Source: Flavobacteriales bacterium
GTDB taxonomy: Bacteria > Bacteroidota > Bacteroidia > Flavobacteriales_F > PHOS-HE28
NCBI GenBank assembly: GCA_019638075.1
Contig: JAHBUM010000004.1
Span: 1-41,120 of the forward strand
DNA: 41,120 nucleotides
Direction of reading: 5' to 3'
The position numbers were made by a program, and so were the translations under genes. The notes below the pieces were generated by a model. That model searched no databases. It was not told where the DNA came from and saw only the letters and a program-made list of their open reading frames with translations. Below, piece by piece: positions 10,450-20,023 of this stretch (positions are counted from its first letter, which is position 1; the number at the start of each line of letters is the position of its first letter).

Positions 10450-10537
10450 CAGTGGTCAGGAACTGCCTGCCTCAGCACCAAACTTCAATTCCAAGGCTCA
10501 AATTCCAAGCTCAAAGCCGCCTTGGCGCTTGAAGTTT
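10450..10537. repeat. Intergenic palindromic repeat, copy 2 of a dispersed family
   Basis: Part of the 329-base gap 10430-10758. AAACTTCAA (10480-10488) is inverted at 10529-10537 (TTGAAGTTT). The segments at 10450-10471 and 10503-10515 match those of the element at 8452-8606. Downstream, 10580-10602 holds short tandem words (GACACCC, GACAACG) that parallel the TGACAACCGACAACTGAC words of copy 1. The rest of the gap up to 10758 holds a candidate promoter box and no recognised gene. Confidence 0.7.
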
Positions 10538-10679
10538 CGAACTTTGAGGATTTCGCCAAGGAGCGACCATCAAAGCGTTCTGACACCCGACACCCGACAA
10601 CGGCGAACTCCCCCACAACCGTTCGGGCTATTCCTGAACAATTCACCCCGGCCAGACCATGGCGCGCACGCCATCCGGG

Positions 10680-10687
10680 TACTTTGG
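10680..10687 (+). promoter_or_regulatory. Putative -7 box TACTTTGG
   Basis: TACTTTGG is one base from TAnnTTTG and lies 71 nt before the ATG at 10759; it implies a 5' leader of roughly 65 nt. Confidence 0.35.
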
Positions 10688-10758
10688 GTTCATCGGAGCC
10701 GCACGTACCAAATCATATTGGGCTCCCTAACAACTTCATTGACCCAAGCCCACCGACC

Positions 10759-13700
10759 ATGAAGAACCACGACCCGGCCACACCCAATGATCGCGCTAAC
10801 CGGCGCAAAGCCTTGATGACGCTGGTCTGTGCCATCGGCTTATTCGGCCACGCACAGGCGCAGACCGTGAACCTGTATTCCTTCTCCAGCGGCACGGGAG
10901 CCTCGCTGGACCCGATGAGCGGTGCCAGCCAGTTACTCGGTGCGAACCAGGATGATGCGGCCTCGGCCGTCACCAACATCGGCTTCTCCTTCAATTACGA
11001 GAGTGCGAACTACACCCAGTTCTCCATCAACTCCCAAGGAAGCATGCAGTTGGGGGGGACGCTCTACCCGTACTCCCCGTACGCCATGAACTATAACCTG
11101 CCTACACGGCCGACGGTGCTTCTGCCCTACGCTGGGGACGGCACCACTGCGGACGGCAGCGTGACCACAACGCTCATAGGCTCATCGCCCAACCAGATCC
11201 GCATCGTGCAGTGGAACGTCGCCATGGACTACAATCCCTCGACAGCCAATATCCTGTACCAGGTGTGGCTGTATGAGGGCACCAACGTGATCGAGTTCCG
11301 CTACGGTGCCGGTGCGCCTACCGGGGGCAACTCAGGTGGCATACAGATAGCCATCACCGGTGCGAACCCTGCGAACTACCTGAACGTGCTCTCCGGCCTG
11401 ACGGCAAGTTCGAGCAGCACCGCGCTGTACACTAACTCCAACGCATGGCCCGGCAACGGCACCATCCTCACCTTCAGCCCGCCAGCACCATGCACCTCAC
11501 CCACCCCGGGCAATACGGTGGCTTCGGTGACCTCAGGTTGCCCCGGTGTTACCACGGCGCTGAGCCTGCAGACGAACACCTCCGGTTCGGGCGTATCCTA
11601 CCAATGGCAGAGCAGTCCCGACGGCAGTAGCTGGAGCGACATCGACGGCGCCACGAACAACACCTATGCCACCGGTGCGCTGAATGCTACCATCTGGTAC
11701 CAGTGCCTGGTGACCTGCGCCACCGGCCCCAGCACGGTGGCCAGCACCCCGGTGCAGATCACGGTGAGCGAACCGGCCATGAGCTACTACACCTATGCGG
11801 GATCGTTGGTCACCGAGAGTTTCGCCACCTGGGCCAACCGGTGCAGCAGCACGGGTGATGTGCCTAACGGCGCAACTGGCGGCTACTGGCGCAACTACCC
11901 GGCCTATGGCCCGGGCACCTGGCGCGCAAGCAATACCACGGTACTGAACTCCGGCTGGAGCGACGTTGGCGGTCCAGGTGGCACAACGGGTGCCACCACC
12001 GGAGCCCCCACTCCTCCCTCCTACGTGGCGGTGTCCCAAACTGCGGCCCGTTTCCACGCCAGGCAAGGCGGCTCCGTCGTGGGCACGCTGGACTTCTACG
12101 TGGACATGTCAGCCGCTAACGGGACTGAAAAGCTGCGGTTCGAGTACACCGCATCGAGCACTCAGGGCTCCTTGGCCGTATACATTTCTCAGAACGGTGG
12201 TAGCAGTTTCTCCCTGCTGGGCACCCCCACCATGGGCCCGGATTTCGCTGCCTGGTACACCCAGGAGTTCACCATCGGCTCCACCAGTCCCATCACGGTG
12301 ATCCGTCTGCAAGGCACCGCAGGCGTCAATCCGGGCAGTGGCAACGACATCGGGGTGGACAACTTCCGCATCATCCCCGCCGCCACCTGCGCAGCACCCA
12401 CGGCTCCTTCGGCGACCGCAACGGGACCCGGCACGGCAAGCGCGAGTTGGACCTGCTCCGGCTGCACGGGTGATTTCTATGTGGAGTACGGCCCCTCCAA
12501 CTTCACGCTGGGCAATGGCACGGTGGCGGGTCCCTTCACCAGCAGCCCGGCCATCATCAACGGCTTGGCCAATGGCAGCTACAAAGCCTACGTACGGCAG
12601 GATTGCGGTGGTGGCAACGGCATCAGCGAGAACGCGGGACCGGTCACCTTCAACATCATGGCGGGCGACTTCTGTGGCAATGCCATCGACCTTGCCACGG
12701 TAACACATAACGACTGGTCCGCTATCGCCAACAGCACCGGAGCGGGTAACGATTATTCCACCTCGGCATGTAGTGCGAACCAGCCCGGTCCGGACTTGGT
12801 GTTCTTCCATGACGTGGAGGCGGGCGCCACCCTCTCCCTCGGCCTGTGGAGCTCTGGCAACCGCCTGTCGGTGGCCTATGGCGGCAGTTGCCCCGGCACC
12901 ACCAGCTTGGCGTGCGCCAACAGCGGCGGCTACTTCGCCTTGGGCGGTGGTGTGCAGCTCGTGAATGACTACGAGACGCTGATATGGACGAACAACGGAT
13001 GCGGGACCGAGCGGATCTACGTGCTTGCCGACGGGATCTCCACCGGCGGCCCCATCTACATCATCAACTACGCCTATACCCCTCCTGGTGGGCCTGTGTG
13101 TGCGGCGGCAACGGGTCTGGCGGTGAGCACCGTGAACACAGGCACCGGCGCCAACGTGAGCTGGAGCGCCACCTGCAGCGGCAACGCGAGCGTGGAGTAC
13201 GGCCCGGCGGGCTTCACCCCCGGCACCGGCACCGCTGTGGCGGTGAGCGGCACCAGCACCGCATTGAGCGGCCTTGCGCTGGATACGCCCTACGATGTGT
13301 ACGTGCGTCAGGATTGCGGTGGTGGCTTGTACAGTGCCTACGGCAGCCCCGCCACCTTCACGCTGCACAACGGCGATGACTGCTCGCGCGTGATCGCCCT
13401 CAGCGGTGCCAGCGGTTCCATCGTGCTGAACACCACCGGCACCAACAACGACATCTCCGCCTGCGTGGGCGGCAACACGGGCGGCGACCTGATCCTCTCC
13501 TACGATGTGGCGCCCGGCTACGGCATCTACTTCACCAGCGCGCCGGTATCGCCCTACGTGGGCCATGTGGCCATCACCACCGGCCCTGCATGCCCGGGCA
13601 ATACCTATCAGTACTGCAACACCGGCGCGGCCGACTTCTTCTATGTGAACGAAGGCATGGCTACGGCCACGGTCTACTTCGTCCAGGACGGCACCAACAA

Positions 13701-15300
13701 CGGCAGCACCACCGTGGAGTGGCTCTACTTCGCCGAATGCGAGCTGTATGATAGCGACGAGGACGGCGTGAACGATTGCACGGACACCTGCCCGGACTTC
13801 CCCGGCCAGCAGGGCGACCCCTGCGACGATGGCTTCGCGAACACGGTGAACGACGTGATCACGGGCGCCTGCCAATGCGCAGGCACGCCCTGCACCACGG
13901 ACCTCACCCTCGAGTTCCGTTCCGATGTGCCGAGCCAGACCACTTGGGAGCTTCGCGATGCCGGCACCAACAATCTGGTGCAGAGCGGCGGCCCGCTGAA
14001 CGGCAGCCCGGAGACGAATTTCACGTGCCTGCCTGACGGCTGCTTCGTGCTGCGTGTGCTGGATAGCGGTGGCGATGGCATGGTAGGCGGCGGCTACGTG
14101 CTGCGCACCACTGGCGACAACCAGCGCATCATCGACAACAGCGGCAACTTCAGCAGCGGCAGCGTGAGCGCCATCGCAGGCAACCAGACCTTCTGCCTGC
14201 CGATGGGCACCGACAAGCTGATCTTCAGCAGCTGCGACAAGCTGGATTGGGTGGACTACAAGTTCATCGTGGTGGCCGAGAACCCGGCCGTGAGCGCACA
14301 GTACGGCGTAAGCAACGCGAACAGCGGTTACGAGTTCTGGTTCTACGAGCCGAACGGTGGCTACAGCTTCCGCCGCTTCCGCAGCCACAGCACCAGCGAT
14401 GGTTACGGTACCGGGGCACTTCGTGCGAACCACTTCAAGATCAACGGCTGGGTGAACAGCGGTGCCACACCGCACATCCCCGCCAACACGCTGCTGAACG
14501 TGCGCGTTCGCGGCCGTGTGGCCGGCAGCAACCTGGAGTTCGGCCCCGCATGCCTGTTCAAGATGGATACCGGCCTGGCAGCATGCCCACGCGTGAAACT
14601 GCAGGATGACCCGGCTAACGCTGCGGACTACAGCTGCGGCGTTACGCGCAGCTTCGGCGGCGGCAGCACCCCTGCCAACCGCATCACAGCCAACCCGCCG
14701 CAGCCCGTTCCCACGGTGTCCAGCGCCAACGTGCGTTACCAGTTCCGCTTCCGCATCGCGGGAGAAGGCATCTGCATCGTGCGCCCGGCACAGACCAGCG
14801 CCCGCCTGGTGCTGAACTGGGCTGCCAGCACCGGTGCCCAGCTGCAACCCAGCAAGACCTACGACGTGGACGTGCGCGTGAGCCTGGATGCTGGCGCCAC
14901 TTGGTGCTTCGGTCCGGCGACCGCTGGCCAAGCCGCAGCCTGCGCCGACAGCGAGGCCTGGGGCAAGGTGTGCAAAGTGACGATCGATGGTGCCCAAGCC
15001 CAAGGCGGCAGCAGCAGCATGGTGGTCGATGCCAACAGCACATTGACGATGTACCCCAACCCGAACCGTGGCGACCAGCTCTTCGTCAACCTCAGCAGTG
15101 TTGAGGCAGGCGTGAGCACGGTGAGCGTGGACATCTTCGACCTGACCGGGAAGAAAGTGACCGCCCGCACCATCGCTGTACAGGACGGCTTCGTGAAGAC
15201 GAACCTGGACCTGAACGGCGATCTCGCCAACGGCATGTACATAGTGAGCGTGACCGCAGGTAGCAAGGCCTACACCGAGCGCCTGGTGATCCAGAAGTAA
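10759..15300 (+). CDS. Large mosaic T9SS-secreted protein, type A sorting domain
   Basis: Predicted surface protein of 1513 residues. The ATG at 10759 gives MKNHDPATPNDRANRRKA followed by a hydrophobic core ending GHAQAQ; the frame is open further upstream (to 10522), but that part runs through the intergenic repeat. In order: a beta-rich N-terminal domain; an Ig-like segment near residues 243-337 (SYQWQSSPDGSSWSD); a jelly-roll-like segment to about 535; two Fn3-like modules (near 550-635 and 775-870), each ending in a YVRQDCGGG block; two cysteine-bracketed modules after them (DFCGNAIDL, DDCSRVIAL); a thrombospondin-3-like Ca-binding stretch near residue 997 (DSDEDGVNDCTDTCPD); an unassigned domain (DKLDWVDYKFIVVAEN) also seen in other Flavobacteriales cargo by my recollection; and a type A sorting domain (MYPNPNRGDQ to the C-terminus). 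A strong terminator follows. Confidence 0.88.
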   Translation: MKNHDPATPNDRANRRKALMTLVCAIGLFGHAQAQTVNLYSFSSGTGASLDPMSGASQLLGANQDDAASAVTNIGFSFNYESANYTQFSINSQGSMQLGGTLYPYSPYAMNYNLPTRPTVLLPYAGDGTTADGSVTTTLIGSSPNQIRIVQWNVAMDYNPSTANILYQVWLYEGTNVIEFRYGAGAPTGGNSGGIQIAITGANPANYLNVLSGLTASSSSTALYTNSNAWPGNGTILTFSPPAPCTSPTPGNTVASVTSGCPGVTTALSLQTNTSGSGVSYQWQSSPDGSSWSDIDGATNNTYATGALNATIWYQCLVTCATGPSTVASTPVQITVSEPAMSYYTYAGSLVTESFATWANRCSSTGDVPNGATGGYWRNYPAYGPGTWRASNTTVLNSGWSDVGGPGGTTGATTGAPTPPSYVAVSQTAARFHARQGGSVVGTLDFYVDMSAANGTEKLRFEYTASSTQGSLAVYISQNGGSSFSLLGTPTMGPDFAAWYTQEFTIGSTSPITVIRLQGTAGVNPGSGNDIGVDNFRIIPAATCAAPTAPSATATGPGTASASWTCSGCTGDFYVEYGPSNFTLGNGTVAGPFTSSPAIINGLANGSYKAYVRQDCGGGNGISENAGPVTFNIMAGDFCGNAIDLATVTHNDWSAIANSTGAGNDYSTSACSANQPGPDLVFFHDVEAGATLSLGLWSSGNRLSVAYGGSCPGTTSLACANSGGYFALGGGVQLVNDYETLIWTNNGCGTERIYVLADGISTGGPIYIINYAYTPPGGPVCAAATGLAVSTVNTGTGANVSWSATCSGNASVEYGPAGFTPGTGTAVAVSGTSTALSGLALDTPYDVYVRQDCGGGLYSAYGSPATFTLHNGDDCSRVIALSGASGSIVLNTTGTNNDISACVGGNTGGDLILSYDVAPGYGIYFTSAPVSPYVGHVAITTGPACPGNTYQYCNTGAADFFYVNEGMATATVYFVQDGTNNGSTTVEWLYFAECELYDSDEDGVNDCTDTCPDFPGQQGDPCDDGFANTVNDVITGACQCAGTPCTTDLTLEFRSDVPSQTTWELRDAGTNNLVQSGGPLNGSPETNFTCLPDGCFVLRVLDSGGDGMVGGGYVLRTTGDNQRIIDNSGNFSSGSVSAIAGNQTFCLPMGTDKLIFSSCDKLDWVDYKFIVVAENPAVSAQYGVSNANSGYEFWFYEPNGGYSFRRFRSHSTSDGYGTGALRANHFKINGWVNSGATPHIPANTLLNVRVRGRVAGSNLEFGPACLFKMDTGLAACPRVKLQDDPANAADYSCGVTRSFGGGSTPANRITANPPQPVPTVSSANVRYQFRFRIAGEGICIVRPAQTSARLVLNWAASTGAQLQPSKTYDVDVRVSLDAGATWCFGPATAGQAAACADSEAWGKVCKVTIDGAQAQGGSSSMVVDANSTLTMYPNPNRGDQLFVNLSSVEAGVSTVSVDIFDLTGKKVTARTIAVQDGFVKTNLDLNGDLANGMYIVSVTAGSKAYTERLVIQK

Positions 15301-16184: not shown

Positions 16185-18851
16185 TCAGCGCGCCTCTTTC
16201 TTCAGGTAGGCGTAGGTGGCCTCCTGCGCGCGGGTCTGCGGGTCGCGCCGGGCGGCATCGCGGTAGGGATTGGTCTGTAGCATATCGATGTGCCGCGCCT
16301 TCACCCGATCGCGCCACTGGATCTCCATCAGTTCCAGCACCATGGCACGCAGTCCCGCGTCGTTCACCGGGAAGGCCACTTCGATGCGCCGGTCGAGGTT
16401 GCGCCCCATCCAATCGGCGGAGGAAAGCATAACCGTGGGTTTGCCACCGTTCACGAAGGCGTACACGCGTGTGTGCTCGAGGAAACGGTCCACGATGCTG
16501 ATGGCCTCGATGTTCGCACTGAGACCTTCGATGCCGGGCACCAAGCAGCAGATGCCACGGATGATGAGCCGCACCTGCACACCGGCATTGCTCGCATCGT
16601 ACAACTTGCGGATCAGCGCCCGGTCCTCAAGGCTGTTCAGCTTCAACAGGATGCCCGACTGACGGCCCGAGCGGGCGTTCTCGATCTCCTTGTCGATCAT
16701 CGCTTCGAGGCTGCCGCGCAGGCTCAGCGGGGCCATCAACAGCTGCGACAGTGCGGGCCGGTGCCTGCGGTCGGCAAGGTGCTGGAACACCTCGGCCACT
16801 TCGCGGGTGATCGCGGGCTGTGCCGTAAGCAGCGCCATGTCCGTGTATATCGTGGAGGTGCGCTCGTTGAAGTTGCCCGTTCCGAGGTAGGCATAGCGCA
16901 CCGTGCGGCCCTTCTCACGGCGCTCCACCAGACACAGCTTGCAATGCACCTTCAGGTTCTCGTAGCTGTACAGCACGCGGGCACCGGCCTTTTCCAACGT
17001 ATCGCCCCAGTACAGGTTGCTGCGCTCATCGAACCGCGCCTGCACTTCCACGAACACCGTCACGCGCTTGCCGCGTTGCAGGGCATCCAGCAGCGCCTTG
17101 CACACCTCCGATCCATCGGCCACACGGTACAGGGTGATGGCGATGTGCTTCACGTGCGGATCGCGCGCGGCCTGTTGCAACCAGCGGACCACGTTGCCGA
17201 AATCGTGGTAGGGGAAATGCCAGAGCACATCCCTCCGCTTCAATGCCTGGAAGGTGGCGGCACCATTGCGGGTGGCGGCATCGGGCACGGGGCGCAGTGC
17301 GGGGTCACGCAGTTCGCGGTATCCCTTCAGTGGTACTTTCAGGAGGTCGCTGAAATTGTGGTAACGCCCGCCGGCCACGATGTCCTGCTTGGAAAGGCCC
17401 AGCAGGTTGCGCAGCGCGCGCAGGGTCGGGCGCGGCATGTCGCCGTCGTACAGGAAGCGCGAGGGAACGCCCATGCTGCGCTTCCGCAGGCTTTTGCGCA
17501 CCTTCTCCTTCACGTTGCCCACATACTCCTCGTCCAGGTGCAGTTCCGCGTCGCGGGATAGTTTGATCGAATGGCAGGCCGTGAGCTTGAACCCCGTGAA
17601 CAATCCGCCAAGGCACAGGCGCATCGCATCGTCCAGGTACATCAGCTCGGTGCGCTTTCCACTGGATGGAAGCACGATGAAGCGCCCCAGCTCGTCGCTC
17701 GGGATGTTCACCAGCACAAGGCGTTCCTTGGACCCGTTCTTCGGCTTGAGGCGGCACGCGAAGTAGAGCCTGCGGTCCTCGATGAACGGCGCGTTGCCTG
17801 CGCGAACGGTGGCCGTGTGCAGCAGCGGCGCCACATGCCGGGTGAAGTGGTCGCGGACGAACTCCTCCTGCCTGCGCGAGAGCTTCTGCGGGGTGAGGAA
17901 GTGGATGCCTTTGCGCGCCAGTGCGGGAAGCAGCTCTTCGCGGTAGAGCTCGCCGAAACGTTCCTGCTGCGCCAATGCCTTGCGGTTGATGCGGTCCACG
18001 CGCTTCTCGGGCGTCACCTCCAATGCGGCGCGGTCCACCTTCTTCAGTCCGGCAAGGCTGCGCAGGGAGGCCACACGCACGCGGTAGAACTCGTCGAGGT
18101 TGCTGGAGTAGATGGCGAGGAACTTCAGCCGTTCCAGCAAGGGCACGGTGCGGTCCATCGCCTCTTGGAGCACGCGGTCGTTGAAGGAGAGCCAGCTGAG
18201 GTCACGGTCGAAGTAGCGGTCCTGCGGCCGTGGGAGCGGATCGCGCCGGTCCTTCGGCATGCGCGACCGTTCGTGCAGCACACGCAGGTTGAGGGCTTTC
18301 TGCTTGCCGTAACGGGCCTGTGCAGCCTTGGTGTGGAAGCGGTGCTGTTCGAGGTAGGCCACGTTCTCCGCCAGCCATTCCGCCGCGCCGATCTTCTTCC
18401 GCCGGACGATCTCCAGCTCCTTCTTCAGCAATTCGCTCTTCTCGATGAAGTCCGCCTGGCCGGCCTTCGCCGAGTCGGCATCGCGCAGCACCTGTTGAAG
18501 GAGGTTGCGAGGCCGGGACCCGAAGCGCGTGCTCAGGATGGTGGCGGCTACACGCACGGCATCGCGTTCGGTCACACCGATGCGCCGCAGGAAGGCCGTC
18601 GCAAGCTTCGCACTTTCCTCCTCGTGGCCCTGGTACACCTTGGCGTAGCCCGTATCATGGAACAGCGCGGCCACCTCCACCAGCGCGAGGTCCGCCACGG
18701 AAAGCCCCATGGCCTGTGCGAGGGCGGTTGCCGTCCGCGCCACGCCCAGCGTATGCTCCAGGTCGTGGAAGTGCATGGTGCGCTGCATGTGTGCGGCGAA
18801 CCATCTGCGTACATGGAGCCTGCAACGCTCCAGTTGGGCCTCGGTGATCAT
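16185..18851 (-). CDS. ppk1: HD-domain / polyphosphate kinase 1 fusion protein
   Basis: Single chain of 888 residues. Residues 1-~200 form an HD phosphohydrolase domain with metal ligands His33, His65-Asp66 (LFHDTGY) and Asp124 (LRDADSA). Residues ~205-888 form a complete PPK1, which reversibly polymerises ATP gamma-phosphate into polyphosphate. It opens with YFDRDLSWLSFNDRVLQEA and keeps both catalytic histidines, His636 (KVHCKL) and His793 (LEHTRVY). Their spacing of 157 equals that between His435 and His592 of E. coli PPK. I prefer the ATG at 18851 (MITEAQLER) over 18926 because a minus-strand TACCTTCG box at 18887-18894 lies between them. The gene is transcribed divergently from the SiaB-like gene. 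PPK1 enzymes normally lack an HD module; the HD part resembles stand-alone Bacteroidota HD proteins. The HD substrate is unknown. Confidence 0.93.
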   Translation of the reverse strand: MITEAQLERCRLHVRRWFAAHMQRTMHFHDLEHTLGVARTATALAQAMGLSVADLALVEVAALFHDTGYAKVYQGHEEESAKLATAFLRRIGVTERDAVRVAATILSTRFGSRPRNLLQQVLRDADSAKAGQADFIEKSELLKKELEIVRRKKIGAAEWLAENVAYLEQHRFHTKAAQARYGKQKALNLRVLHERSRMPKDRRDPLPRPQDRYFDRDLSWLSFNDRVLQEAMDRTVPLLERLKFLAIYSSNLDEFYRVRVASLRSLAGLKKVDRAALEVTPEKRVDRINRKALAQQERFGELYREELLPALARKGIHFLTPQKLSRRQEEFVRDHFTRHVAPLLHTATVRAGNAPFIEDRRLYFACRLKPKNGSKERLVLVNIPSDELGRFIVLPSSGKRTELMYLDDAMRLCLGGLFTGFKLTACHSIKLSRDAELHLDEEYVGNVKEKVRKSLRKRSMGVPSRFLYDGDMPRPTLRALRNLLGLSKQDIVAGGRYHNFSDLLKVPLKGYRELRDPALRPVPDAATRNGAATFQALKRRDVLWHFPYHDFGNVVRWLQQAARDPHVKHIAITLYRVADGSEVCKALLDALQRGKRVTVFVEVQARFDERSNLYWGDTLEKAGARVLYSYENLKVHCKLCLVERREKGRTVRYAYLGTGNFNERTSTIYTDMALLTAQPAITREVAEVFQHLADRRHRPALSQLLMAPLSLRGSLEAMIDKEIENARSGRQSGILLKLNSLEDRALIRKLYDASNAGVQVRLIIRGICCLVPGIEGLSANIEAISIVDRFLEHTRVYAFVNGGKPTVMLSSADWMGRNLDRRIEVAFPVNDAGLRAMVLELMEIQWRDRVKARHIDMLQTNPYRDAARRDPQTRAQEATYAYLKKEAR

Positions 18852-18961: not shown

Positions 18962-20023
18962 ATGGATCACGCCCAAGCCCTTGCGCTCTATGCGAGCTTC
19001 GCTGGCGACCGGCTTACGTTCCTGTACAGCGGCAGTTTCCACGACGAGCATACCGCACGGCTGATCGCGTTGCAGGAGGAGTTCCTGGAGCGGGAGGGCG
19101 CTCCACGCGCGCTCCGTGGGAAGCTGGCCTTCGCGATGGTGGAGGCCTATCAGAACATCGTACGGCACCGGGTTAAGGATCCCGCGCTGATGAACGGTGC
19201 GGGCCGCAGCCTCTTCCTGCTACGCAGCTCACCGGAGGCGCATGAGGTGACCGCCATGAACGCGGTGGATGCCGCTGATGAGCAGAAGCTGCGCGCCACC
19301 TTGGAGCGCCTGTCCGGCATGGACCTGCACCAGATGAAACAGGTCTTCCTGCGGGGGTTGCAGGATGAAGCACGCTCCCATCGCGGGGGTGCGGGCCTCG
19401 GGCTCATCGAGATGGCCCGCCGCTCGGGGAACCCGTTGGGGCACACCTTCACGCCGGTGGGCACGGGCCATGCGCTCTTCACCCTGCAGGTGCTGGTGGG
19501 CGGTTCCGGCGTGCGGCGCAGCGAGGATGCCAGCCTGCGCAGTGTGCATCGCATCGTGGTGGAGAACGGCATCACCCTCCTCTGCCGGGGCGATCTGCCC
19601 GCCGTGATGCAGGAGAACCTGCTGCGCATGATCGAACGCGACCTGGACGATGACCAGGCGCGCGCCGGGCGCGCCAAGCATGCCTTCCTGCTGCTGATGG
19701 GTGCCATCGAAGCCATGGACATCGCCGGTGAAGGGCCGATGGTGGCGGTGGCGATGCAGGAAGGCCGCACCACGGTGACGGTAGCCACGCCGTTGACCAC
19801 GAAGGGGGCGGAACGCGCGCAACAGGCGGTGGACATGGTGAACGCGATGGATCCGCCCGCGTTGCAGCGCCGCTACCGCGACATCCTGCTGGGTCGCGGC
19901 GAGGCGGCCAGCGGCCTGGACCTCGGACTGATCGACCTTGCCCGCCGAAGCACCGGCCCGCTTCGTTCCCATGGCGACACGTGGCGTGATGCGCCGTTCG
20001 CCGTGCTGGAAGTGGACGTTTAA
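18962..20023 (+). CDS. Tandem SiaB-like (DUF6272) protein kinase-family protein
   Basis: Protein of 353 residues built from two SiaB-like halves. The first (about 1-185) carries GHKL-type features: an N-box-like helix (FAMVEAYQNIVRHR) and a glycine segment (GGAGLGLIEMARRS). SiaB proteins are kinases of STAS-domain anti-sigma-antagonist-like partners in the SiaABC system. The second half (about 195-353) repeats the fold outline (LLLMGAIEAMDI, GLDLGLIDLARRS) but lacks the Asn of the N-box and one glycine, so it is probably non-catalytic. No SiaA or SiaC partner is visible nearby. The gene faces away from HD-PPK with a short shared promoter region, suggesting possible co-regulation. Family assignment is by motif and general resemblance only. 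Confidence 0.78.
   Translation: MDHAQALALYASFAGDRLTFLYSGSFHDEHTARLIALQEEFLEREGAPRALRGKLAFAMVEAYQNIVRHRVKDPALMNGAGRSLFLLRSSPEAHEVTAMNAVDAADEQKLRATLERLSGMDLHQMKQVFLRGLQDEARSHRGGAGLGLIEMARRSGNPLGHTFTPVGTGHALFTLQVLVGGSGVRRSEDASLRSVHRIVVENGITLLCRGDLPAVMQENLLRMIERDLDDDQARAGRAKHAFLLLMGAIEAMDIAGEGPMVAVAMQEGRTTVTVATPLTTKGAERAQQAVDMVNAMDPPALQRRYRDILLGRGEAASGLDLGLIDLARRSTGPLRSHGDTWRDAPFAVLEVDV

What the first reader, a model, noticed from the sequence alone, without database searches (positions are those of the whole stretch)
16185..18851. HD phosphohydrolase domain fused to a complete polyphosphate kinase 1
Seen: one uninterrupted 888-residue frame with HD ligands His33, His65-Asp66 and Asp124, followed by a full PPK1 with both catalytic histidines at the E. 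coli spacing (157 residues). Known: PPK1 enzymes are normally about 690 residues and lack an HD module; stand-alone HD proteins of similar sequence exist in Bacteroidota, often fused instead to a membrane effector-type domain. Inference: the HD part may hydrolyse a nucleotide or alarmone that controls polyphosphate synthesis, making a self-regulated enzyme.
Basis: partly seen in the sequence, partly recalled or inferred. Interest (0 to 1): 0.78.

Follow-up and report, generated by a model that had tools for sequence, protein, structure and literature searches.

The report
Polyphosphate kinase fused to HD hydrolase
A whole genus of wastewater bacteria makes its only polyphosphate-building enzyme (PPK1) as one protein with an apparently intact HD-type phosphohydrolase, and relatives of that HD part lie next to the PPK1 gene in other Bacteroidota, which suggests an undescribed link between nucleotide turnover and polyphosphate.

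Summary
It is not an assembly error. The fusion is present in 38 of 45 sampled genomes of the genus (53-82% identical), with conserved start and HD ligands, and is the only PPK1 found there. It was not seen in other Bacteroidota sampled.

(1) The fused HD forms one clade inside a family whose usual form is HD joined to a PycTM (Pycsar-effector-type) membrane domain. (2) In four other families, such HD(-PycTM) genes lie beside PPK1, usually with a SixA-like phosphatase gene between (8 of the 20 HD loci best matched). The fusion therefore looks like a gene-neighbour pair that became one polypeptide. (3) By fold the HD is nearest to YpgQ, a nucleotide pyrophosphohydrolase, and relatives are fused to or neighbour class III nucleotide cyclases.

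Most likely the HD is active on a nucleotide and tunes polyphosphate synthesis in cis. Substrate and effect on PPK1 are untested. It is a new variant of a known enzyme.

The parts
16185..18851 (-). HD-PPK1 fusion gene, 888 aa + stop
   Evidence: single open frame; start codon position shared with nearly all relatives
18270..18851 (-). HD phosphohydrolase domain (residues 1-194)
   Evidence: PF01966 and TIGR00277 above cut-offs; HD-only model pLDDT 96.7; nearest folds YpgQ 5dqw and 2pq7
18753..18755 (-). codon of His33, first HD metal ligand (HDxxH motif)
   Evidence: invariant in 22 fusion HDs
18654..18659 (-). codons of His65-Asp66, the HD signature
   Evidence: invariant
18480..18482 (-). 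codon of Asp124, last HD ligand
   Evidence: invariant
18219..18269 (-). linker of about 15-19 poorly conserved residues, without a conserved internal start codon
16188..18218 (-). complete PPK1 (residues 212-888; N, middle, C1 and C2 domains)
   Evidence: TIGR03705 740 bits, four Pfam domains; 1xdo E 8e-56 by fold
16944..16946 (-). codon of PPK1 catalytic His636 (E. coli His435 position)
   Evidence: alignment; invariant
16473..16475 (-). codon of PPK1 His793 (E. coli His592 position)
   Evidence: alignment; invariant
18962..20023 (+). divergently transcribed DUF6272 gene, conserved neighbour of the fusion in the genus; functional link unknown
   Evidence: PF19788; homologue directly upstream in 34 of 35 fusion loci

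Best explanation
The gene encodes one bifunctional protein. Its N-terminal HD domain is a metal-dependent phosphohydrolase of the HD-PycTM family of Bacteroidota, and its C-terminal part is an ordinary active-type PPK1. Shown: the fusion, its conservation, intact active-site residues of both halves, purifying selection on both, a single origin from the HD-PycTM family, and the neighbourhood of the unfused relatives with PPK1. Inferred: the HD hydrolyses a small nucleotide (a (d)NTP-, cyclic- or tetraphosphate-type compound, probably to an NMP) that acts as signal for or inhibitor of polyphosphate synthesis. In many Bacteroidota this HD is a separate, usually membrane-anchored protein, in some families made next to PPK1. 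In this genus the anchor was lost and the HD was fixed to PPK1, so that nucleotide turnover tunes polyphosphate synthesis within the same polypeptide.
For: Fusion in 38 of 45 genus genomes, always the sole PPK1. All HD ligands invariant, with further invariant residues H29, H76-E77, D126, E145, K185. HD dN/dS 0.10-0.20 against 0.07-0.23 for PPK1. HD clade 100/99 nested in the HD-PycTM group 100/99, apart from the second, stand-alone HD of the same genomes. HD(-PycTM) next to PPK1, usually with a SixA-like phosphatase between, in 8 of 20 loci from four families and in varied arrangements: fused or separate HD and PycTM, co-directional or divergent. Fold nearest to YpgQ, characterised as acting on (d)NTPs (PMC8177086). 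HD relatives fused to class III cyclases or beside one.
Against: No substrate or effect on PPK1 is shown. Invariant ligands also suit a binding-only role. Homology to YpgQ is weak (profile E 0.024; about 20% identity by fold). Many HD-PycTM genes have no PPK1 within the stretch read; in one large family they lie next to an Omp85-metallophosphoesterase gene instead. Three nearly complete genomes of the genus lack the gene altogether.
Confidence: 0.5

Rival explanations
1. Metabolic partner: the HD processes a reactant or by-product of PPK1 itself (NTP or dNTP, nucleoside tetraphosphate such as ppppG made by PPK1, pyrophosphate or the polyphosphate chain), so the fusion is a channelled pair or house-cleaning module, with no signalling.
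For: YpgQ cleaves (d)NTPs. The neighbourhood of the unfused relatives is rich in phosphatases: SixA-like, metallophosphoesterase, PAP2.
Against: All 24 genus genomes tested have Ppx/GppA, nearly all two copies, so no exopolyphosphatase is missing. Relatives are also fused to or beside nucleotide cyclases and PycTM, which points to signalling nucleotides.
Confidence: 0.22
2. Sensor only: the HD binds metal and a nucleotide and controls PPK1 allosterically or sets its oligomeric state, without turnover that matters.
For: Full-length model with high overall confidence, pTM 0.88, consistent with a fixed HD-PPK1 arrangement. In HD-PycTM the same domain sits where a ligand sensor would.
Against: All residues needed for catalysis are invariant across the genus and nearly so across the wider family.
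Confidence: 0.15
3. Defence: the protein is part of a Pycsar-like anti-phage response in which polyphosphate synthesis or ATP depletion replaces the membrane effector.
For: HD clade derived from HD-PycTM; two HD-PycTM loci in one family have a class III cyclase next door.
Against: Genus-wide, single-copy gene with conserved housekeeping neighbours; PADLOC matches to the HD are weak Cas3/dGTPase hits; most HD-PycTM loci lie beside polyphosphate or phosphatase genes.
Confidence: 0.07
4. Assembly or annotation artefact, or two proteins made from one transcript.
For: Draft metagenome assembly.
Against: Same fusion in 35 independently deposited loci and in a genome held as one contig; no conserved internal start in the linker.
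Confidence: 0.02

Closest known systems
Polyphosphate kinase 1 (TIGR03705; E. coli PPK1, PDB 1xdo; P. gingivalis PPK1, 2o8r)
   Same: Complete four-domain PPK1, both catalytic histidines, fold match E 8e-56
   Different: Carries an extra 194-residue HD domain; ordinary PPK1 is about 690 aa in every other Bacteroidia genome listed
HD-PycTM proteins of Bacteroidota (HD + PF18967 Pycsar effector domain)
   Same: Closest relatives of the HD part; same ligands; in some families encoded beside PPK1
   Different: They carry a membrane domain instead of PPK1; the window protein has none and the window genome has no PycTM match
YpgQ of Bacillus subtilis (5dqv/5dqw) and related HD hydrolases 2pq7, 3b57, 3dto, 2pjq
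   Same: Nearest solved folds of the HD domain, TM 0.63-0.73; same H...HD...D ligands; YpgQ also has a His four residues before the first ligand
   Different: About 20% identity; none of them is reported in the sources read as fused to PPK1; substrate of the window HD unknown
Bacteroidota HD domains fused to class III cyclases or TIR-TPR proteins (L129, L136, L127, L128)
   Same: Same HD superfamily branch with the same ligands
   Different: Separate clade, grouping with the stand-alone HD of the genus and not with the fusion HD

Membership tests
Polyphosphate kinase 1 | Match to the PPK1 equivalog model above its cut-off | tested here: met
   TIGR03705 740.5 bits, cut-off 465.9
Polyphosphate kinase 1 | Both catalytic histidines (E. 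coli H435, H592) | tested here: met
   H636 and H793, aligned to 1xdo, invariant in 21 proteins
Polyphosphate kinase 1 | Polyphosphate synthesis from ATP | not testable with these tools
   needs purified protein
HD-domain phosphohydrolase superfamily | HD profile match above cut-off | tested here: met
   PF01966 46.8 bits, cut-off 22; TIGR00277 32.5, cut-off 27.6
HD-domain phosphohydrolase superfamily | Metal ligands H...HD...D | tested here: met
   H33, H65-D66, D124, invariant
HD-domain phosphohydrolase superfamily | Phosphohydrolase activity | not testable with these tools
   needs an assay
YpgQ-type nucleotide pyrophosphohydrolase | Specific sequence or fold similarity to YpgQ | tested here: inconclusive
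   Among the nearest folds, but profile match to 5dqv only E 0.024
YqeK Ap4A hydrolase | Match to TIGR00488 above cut-off; two extra His ligands between HD and D | tested here: not met
   15.8-18.9 bits against 70.15; only one invariant extra His, H76
RelA/SpoT (p)ppGpp hydrolase | Match to an RSH hydrolase domain model | tested here: not met
   none listed at E<=1 in Pfam or NCBIfam
dGTP triphosphohydrolase | Match to the equivalog model above cut-off | tested here: not met
   13.3 bits against 494
Pycsar effector | PycTM or TIR effector domain in the protein | tested here: not met
   no PycTM or TIR match in the protein; no PycTM in the genome

The most novel reading that the evidence does not exclude
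The fusion exposes a phylum-wide regulatory system in which a nucleotide second messenger, possibly a cyclic nucleotide, controls polyphosphate through HD(-PycTM) proteins. HD-PycTM would then be mainly a polyphosphate/phosphate regulator in many Bacteroidota and not only an anti-phage effector, and in this genus control and synthesis became one enzyme.
Probability: 0.2. Interest if true: 0.82.

Novelty: new variant of a known kind. Interest (0 to 1): 0.56.

Why it matters
How PPK1 is controlled is poorly understood in most bacteria (general knowledge). A natural fusion, supported by gene neighbourhood in other families, names a concrete partner (an HD hydrolase and the HD-PycTM family) and makes the question testable with one soluble protein. 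The genus matches, by base composition, genome size and source, the wastewater group PHOS-HE28 (identity inferred). That group has been suggested as a possible polyphosphate accumulator only because it has ppk1 (PMC10687191), and this shows that its ppk1 is unusual. It also gives the HD-PycTM proteins, which profile annotation would label as Pycsar effectors, a possible second role.

Tried and rejected
Assembly error: rejected. Dual translation from an internal start: no conserved Met in the linker. HD as substitute for a missing exopolyphosphatase: Ppx/GppA is present in all 24 genomes tested, nearly always in two copies. SpoT, YqeK, dGTPase identity: models below cut-off or absent. Descent of the fused HD from the genus's own stand-alone HD: different clade. 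Papers on an HD-PPK1 fusion: none found in the held library; the titles and abstracts of the four papers that mention PycTM show no link to polyphosphate. The PADLOC hit to DrmC is explained by the PLD-like fold of PPK1 (with PF13091). The order search added nothing, since the held order contains only this genus. The PPK1 tree shows the fusion PPK1s as one clade but does not resolve their nearest relatives.

Full report
WHAT IS THERE. The gene lies on the minus strand, 18851 to 16185, one uninterrupted frame of 888 codons plus stop. The longest ORF begins 25 codons upstream, but homology to relatives begins at about residue 15-31 of that ORF and nearly all relatives have a Met at or within three codons of the position of 18851. 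Pfam and NCBIfam place an HD domain followed by all four PPK1 domains, each above its cut-off; the PPK1 equivalog model scores 740 bits against a cut-off of 466.

IT IS REAL AND CONSERVED. In 45 genomes of the same genus, 38 carry the fusion (three of them in pieces or partial), 53-82% identical, and no stand-alone PPK1 was found in any; the one near-complete PPK1 match without the HD part stops at a contig end. Seven genomes have no PPK1 match, three of which are 99-100% complete, so the gene is lost as a unit. A scan of one genome per species with patterns from the HD returned 35 fusion loci, all from metagenome-assembled Bacteroidota, mostly labelled Flavobacteriales. The HD and PPK1 halves are under comparable purifying selection (dN/dS 0.10-0.20 and 0.07-0.23; dS is near saturation for the more distant pairs), and all HD ligands are invariant. 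The linker is short, variable and without a conserved internal start.

IT IS CONFINED. In 247 Bacteroidia genomes every listed PPK1 outside the genus is a plain protein of about 690 aa (the tail of weaker matches was not listed). Other phyla were not sampled for HD-PPK1 fusions with unrelated HDs.

WHERE THE HD COMES FROM. Outside the genus the nearest HDs are N-terminal parts of HD-PycTM proteins. In a 75-sequence tree the fusion HDs form one clade (100/99) inside the group made of HD-PycTM and related HDs (100/99). The second, stand-alone HD of the same genomes falls in a different group, with cyclase-fused and TIR-TPR-fused HDs. The sister of the fusion clade within the HD-PycTM group is not resolved (85/46). 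The window genome itself has no PycTM match, and most of the genus lacks PycTM (31 of 44 genomes).

A NEIGHBOURHOOD THAT PREDICTS THE FUSION. Of the 20 HD loci outside the genus most similar to the fusion HD, 8 have PPK1 immediately next to the HD(-PycTM) gene or separated only by a SixA-like histidine phosphatase gene (and, in one, a separate PycTM gene). They come from four families and in varied arrangements: HD-PycTM then PPK1; HD-PycTM, SixA, PPK1; HD and PycTM as separate genes, then SixA and PPK1; or HD-PycTM divergent from SixA-PPK1. In a genome of several thousand genes, chance would give almost none (estimate, not a computed test). In a further 20, more distant loci PPK1 was seen only once, about 5.5 kb away, while an Omp85-metallophosphoesterase gene is next door in most, so the PPK1 link is a property of part of the family. 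The SixA-PPK1 pair is itself common: 9 of 20 PPK1 loci sampled in the class.

LIKELY CHEMISTRY. The HD model is confident (pLDDT 96.7) and its nearest solved folds are 2pjq, 2pq7 and YpgQ (5dqw) at about 20% identity. YpgQ is a Mn-dependent enzyme acting on (d)NTPs, with ligands H29, H58, D59, D124 and an extra active-site H25 (PMC8177086; the pyrophosphohydrolase name is from the title of the work it cites). The fusion has the same spacing of an extra His four residues before the first ligand (H29, H33). Models for YqeK, dGTPase and RelA/SpoT do not fit. Relatives are fused to class III cyclases (L129, L136), and in one family a cyclase gene lies beside HD-PycTM. A nucleotide substrate is therefore the best guess; its identity is open.

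HOW IT PROBABLY WORKS. Shown: a conserved single protein with intact active-site residues in both halves, and a gene-neighbour history. Inferred: the HD removes a nucleotide that signals to or inhibits PPK1, so that polyphosphate synthesis follows the level of that nucleotide. Rivals are a metabolic pair acting on PPK1's own substrates or products, a binding-only sensor, and a defence role. Ppx/GppA is present throughout, so the HD is not needed as an exopolyphosphatase.

CONTEXT AND NOVELTY. Window GC is about 64%. GC, genome size and the likely wastewater origin of relatives (read from record titles) fit the group PHOS-HE28 (59-65% GC, 3.2-4.5 Mb, wastewater; PMC7214798); the identity is inferred, as genome names are withheld. 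One paper notes that PHOS-HE28 has ppk1 and might store phosphate, and in the passage found says nothing of an HD domain (PMC10687191). No held paper describes an HD-PPK1 fusion under the terms searched. I class it as a new variant of a known kind: both domains are known, while the combination and the HD(-PycTM)/PPK1 linkage appear undescribed in what could be searched here.

Noticed in passing
L138, L139, L143, L145, L147, L151, L152, L156: Gene cluster HD-PycTM (or HD + PycTM), usually a SixA-like phosphatase, and PPK1 in four Bacteroidota families; may indicate a polyphosphate role for HD-PycTM proteins.
   Followed up: yes
L177-L179, L183-L185, L187-L194, L196 and others: Outer-membrane Omp85 barrel joined to a calcineurin-like metallophosphoesterase encoded beside HD-PycTM, conserved in one large family and present elsewhere.
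   Followed up: partly
L146:8203-9285 and L155:4973-6085: Class III cyclase gene next to HD-PycTM in one family, a possible Pycsar-like pair.
   Followed up: partly
L129:6166-11763, L136:986-2572: Class III nucleotide cyclase with a C-terminal HD of the same superfamily branch: possible synthesis and degradation of a cyclic nucleotide in one protein.
   Followed up: partly
L127:2602-5241, L128: TPR protein of about 870 aa, with a TIR-like N-terminus by eye (not matched by Pfam), ending in an HD domain of this family.
   Followed up: no
window 18962-20023 (+): DUF6272 / HATPase-like gene divergent from the fusion; homologue in the same place in 34 of 35 fusion loci.
   Followed up: partly
G017, G032, G034: Nearly complete genomes of the genus with no PPK1 match at all while keeping an HD relative; Ppx/GppA is kept in G032 and G034.
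   Followed up: no
L062: Public MAG record titled Chryseobacterium gleum carries this genus's HD-PPK1 fusion; the name looks wrong.
   Followed up: no
window 10522-15300 (+): 1592-aa protein with a type IX secretion C-terminal sorting domain (PF18962).
   Followed up: no
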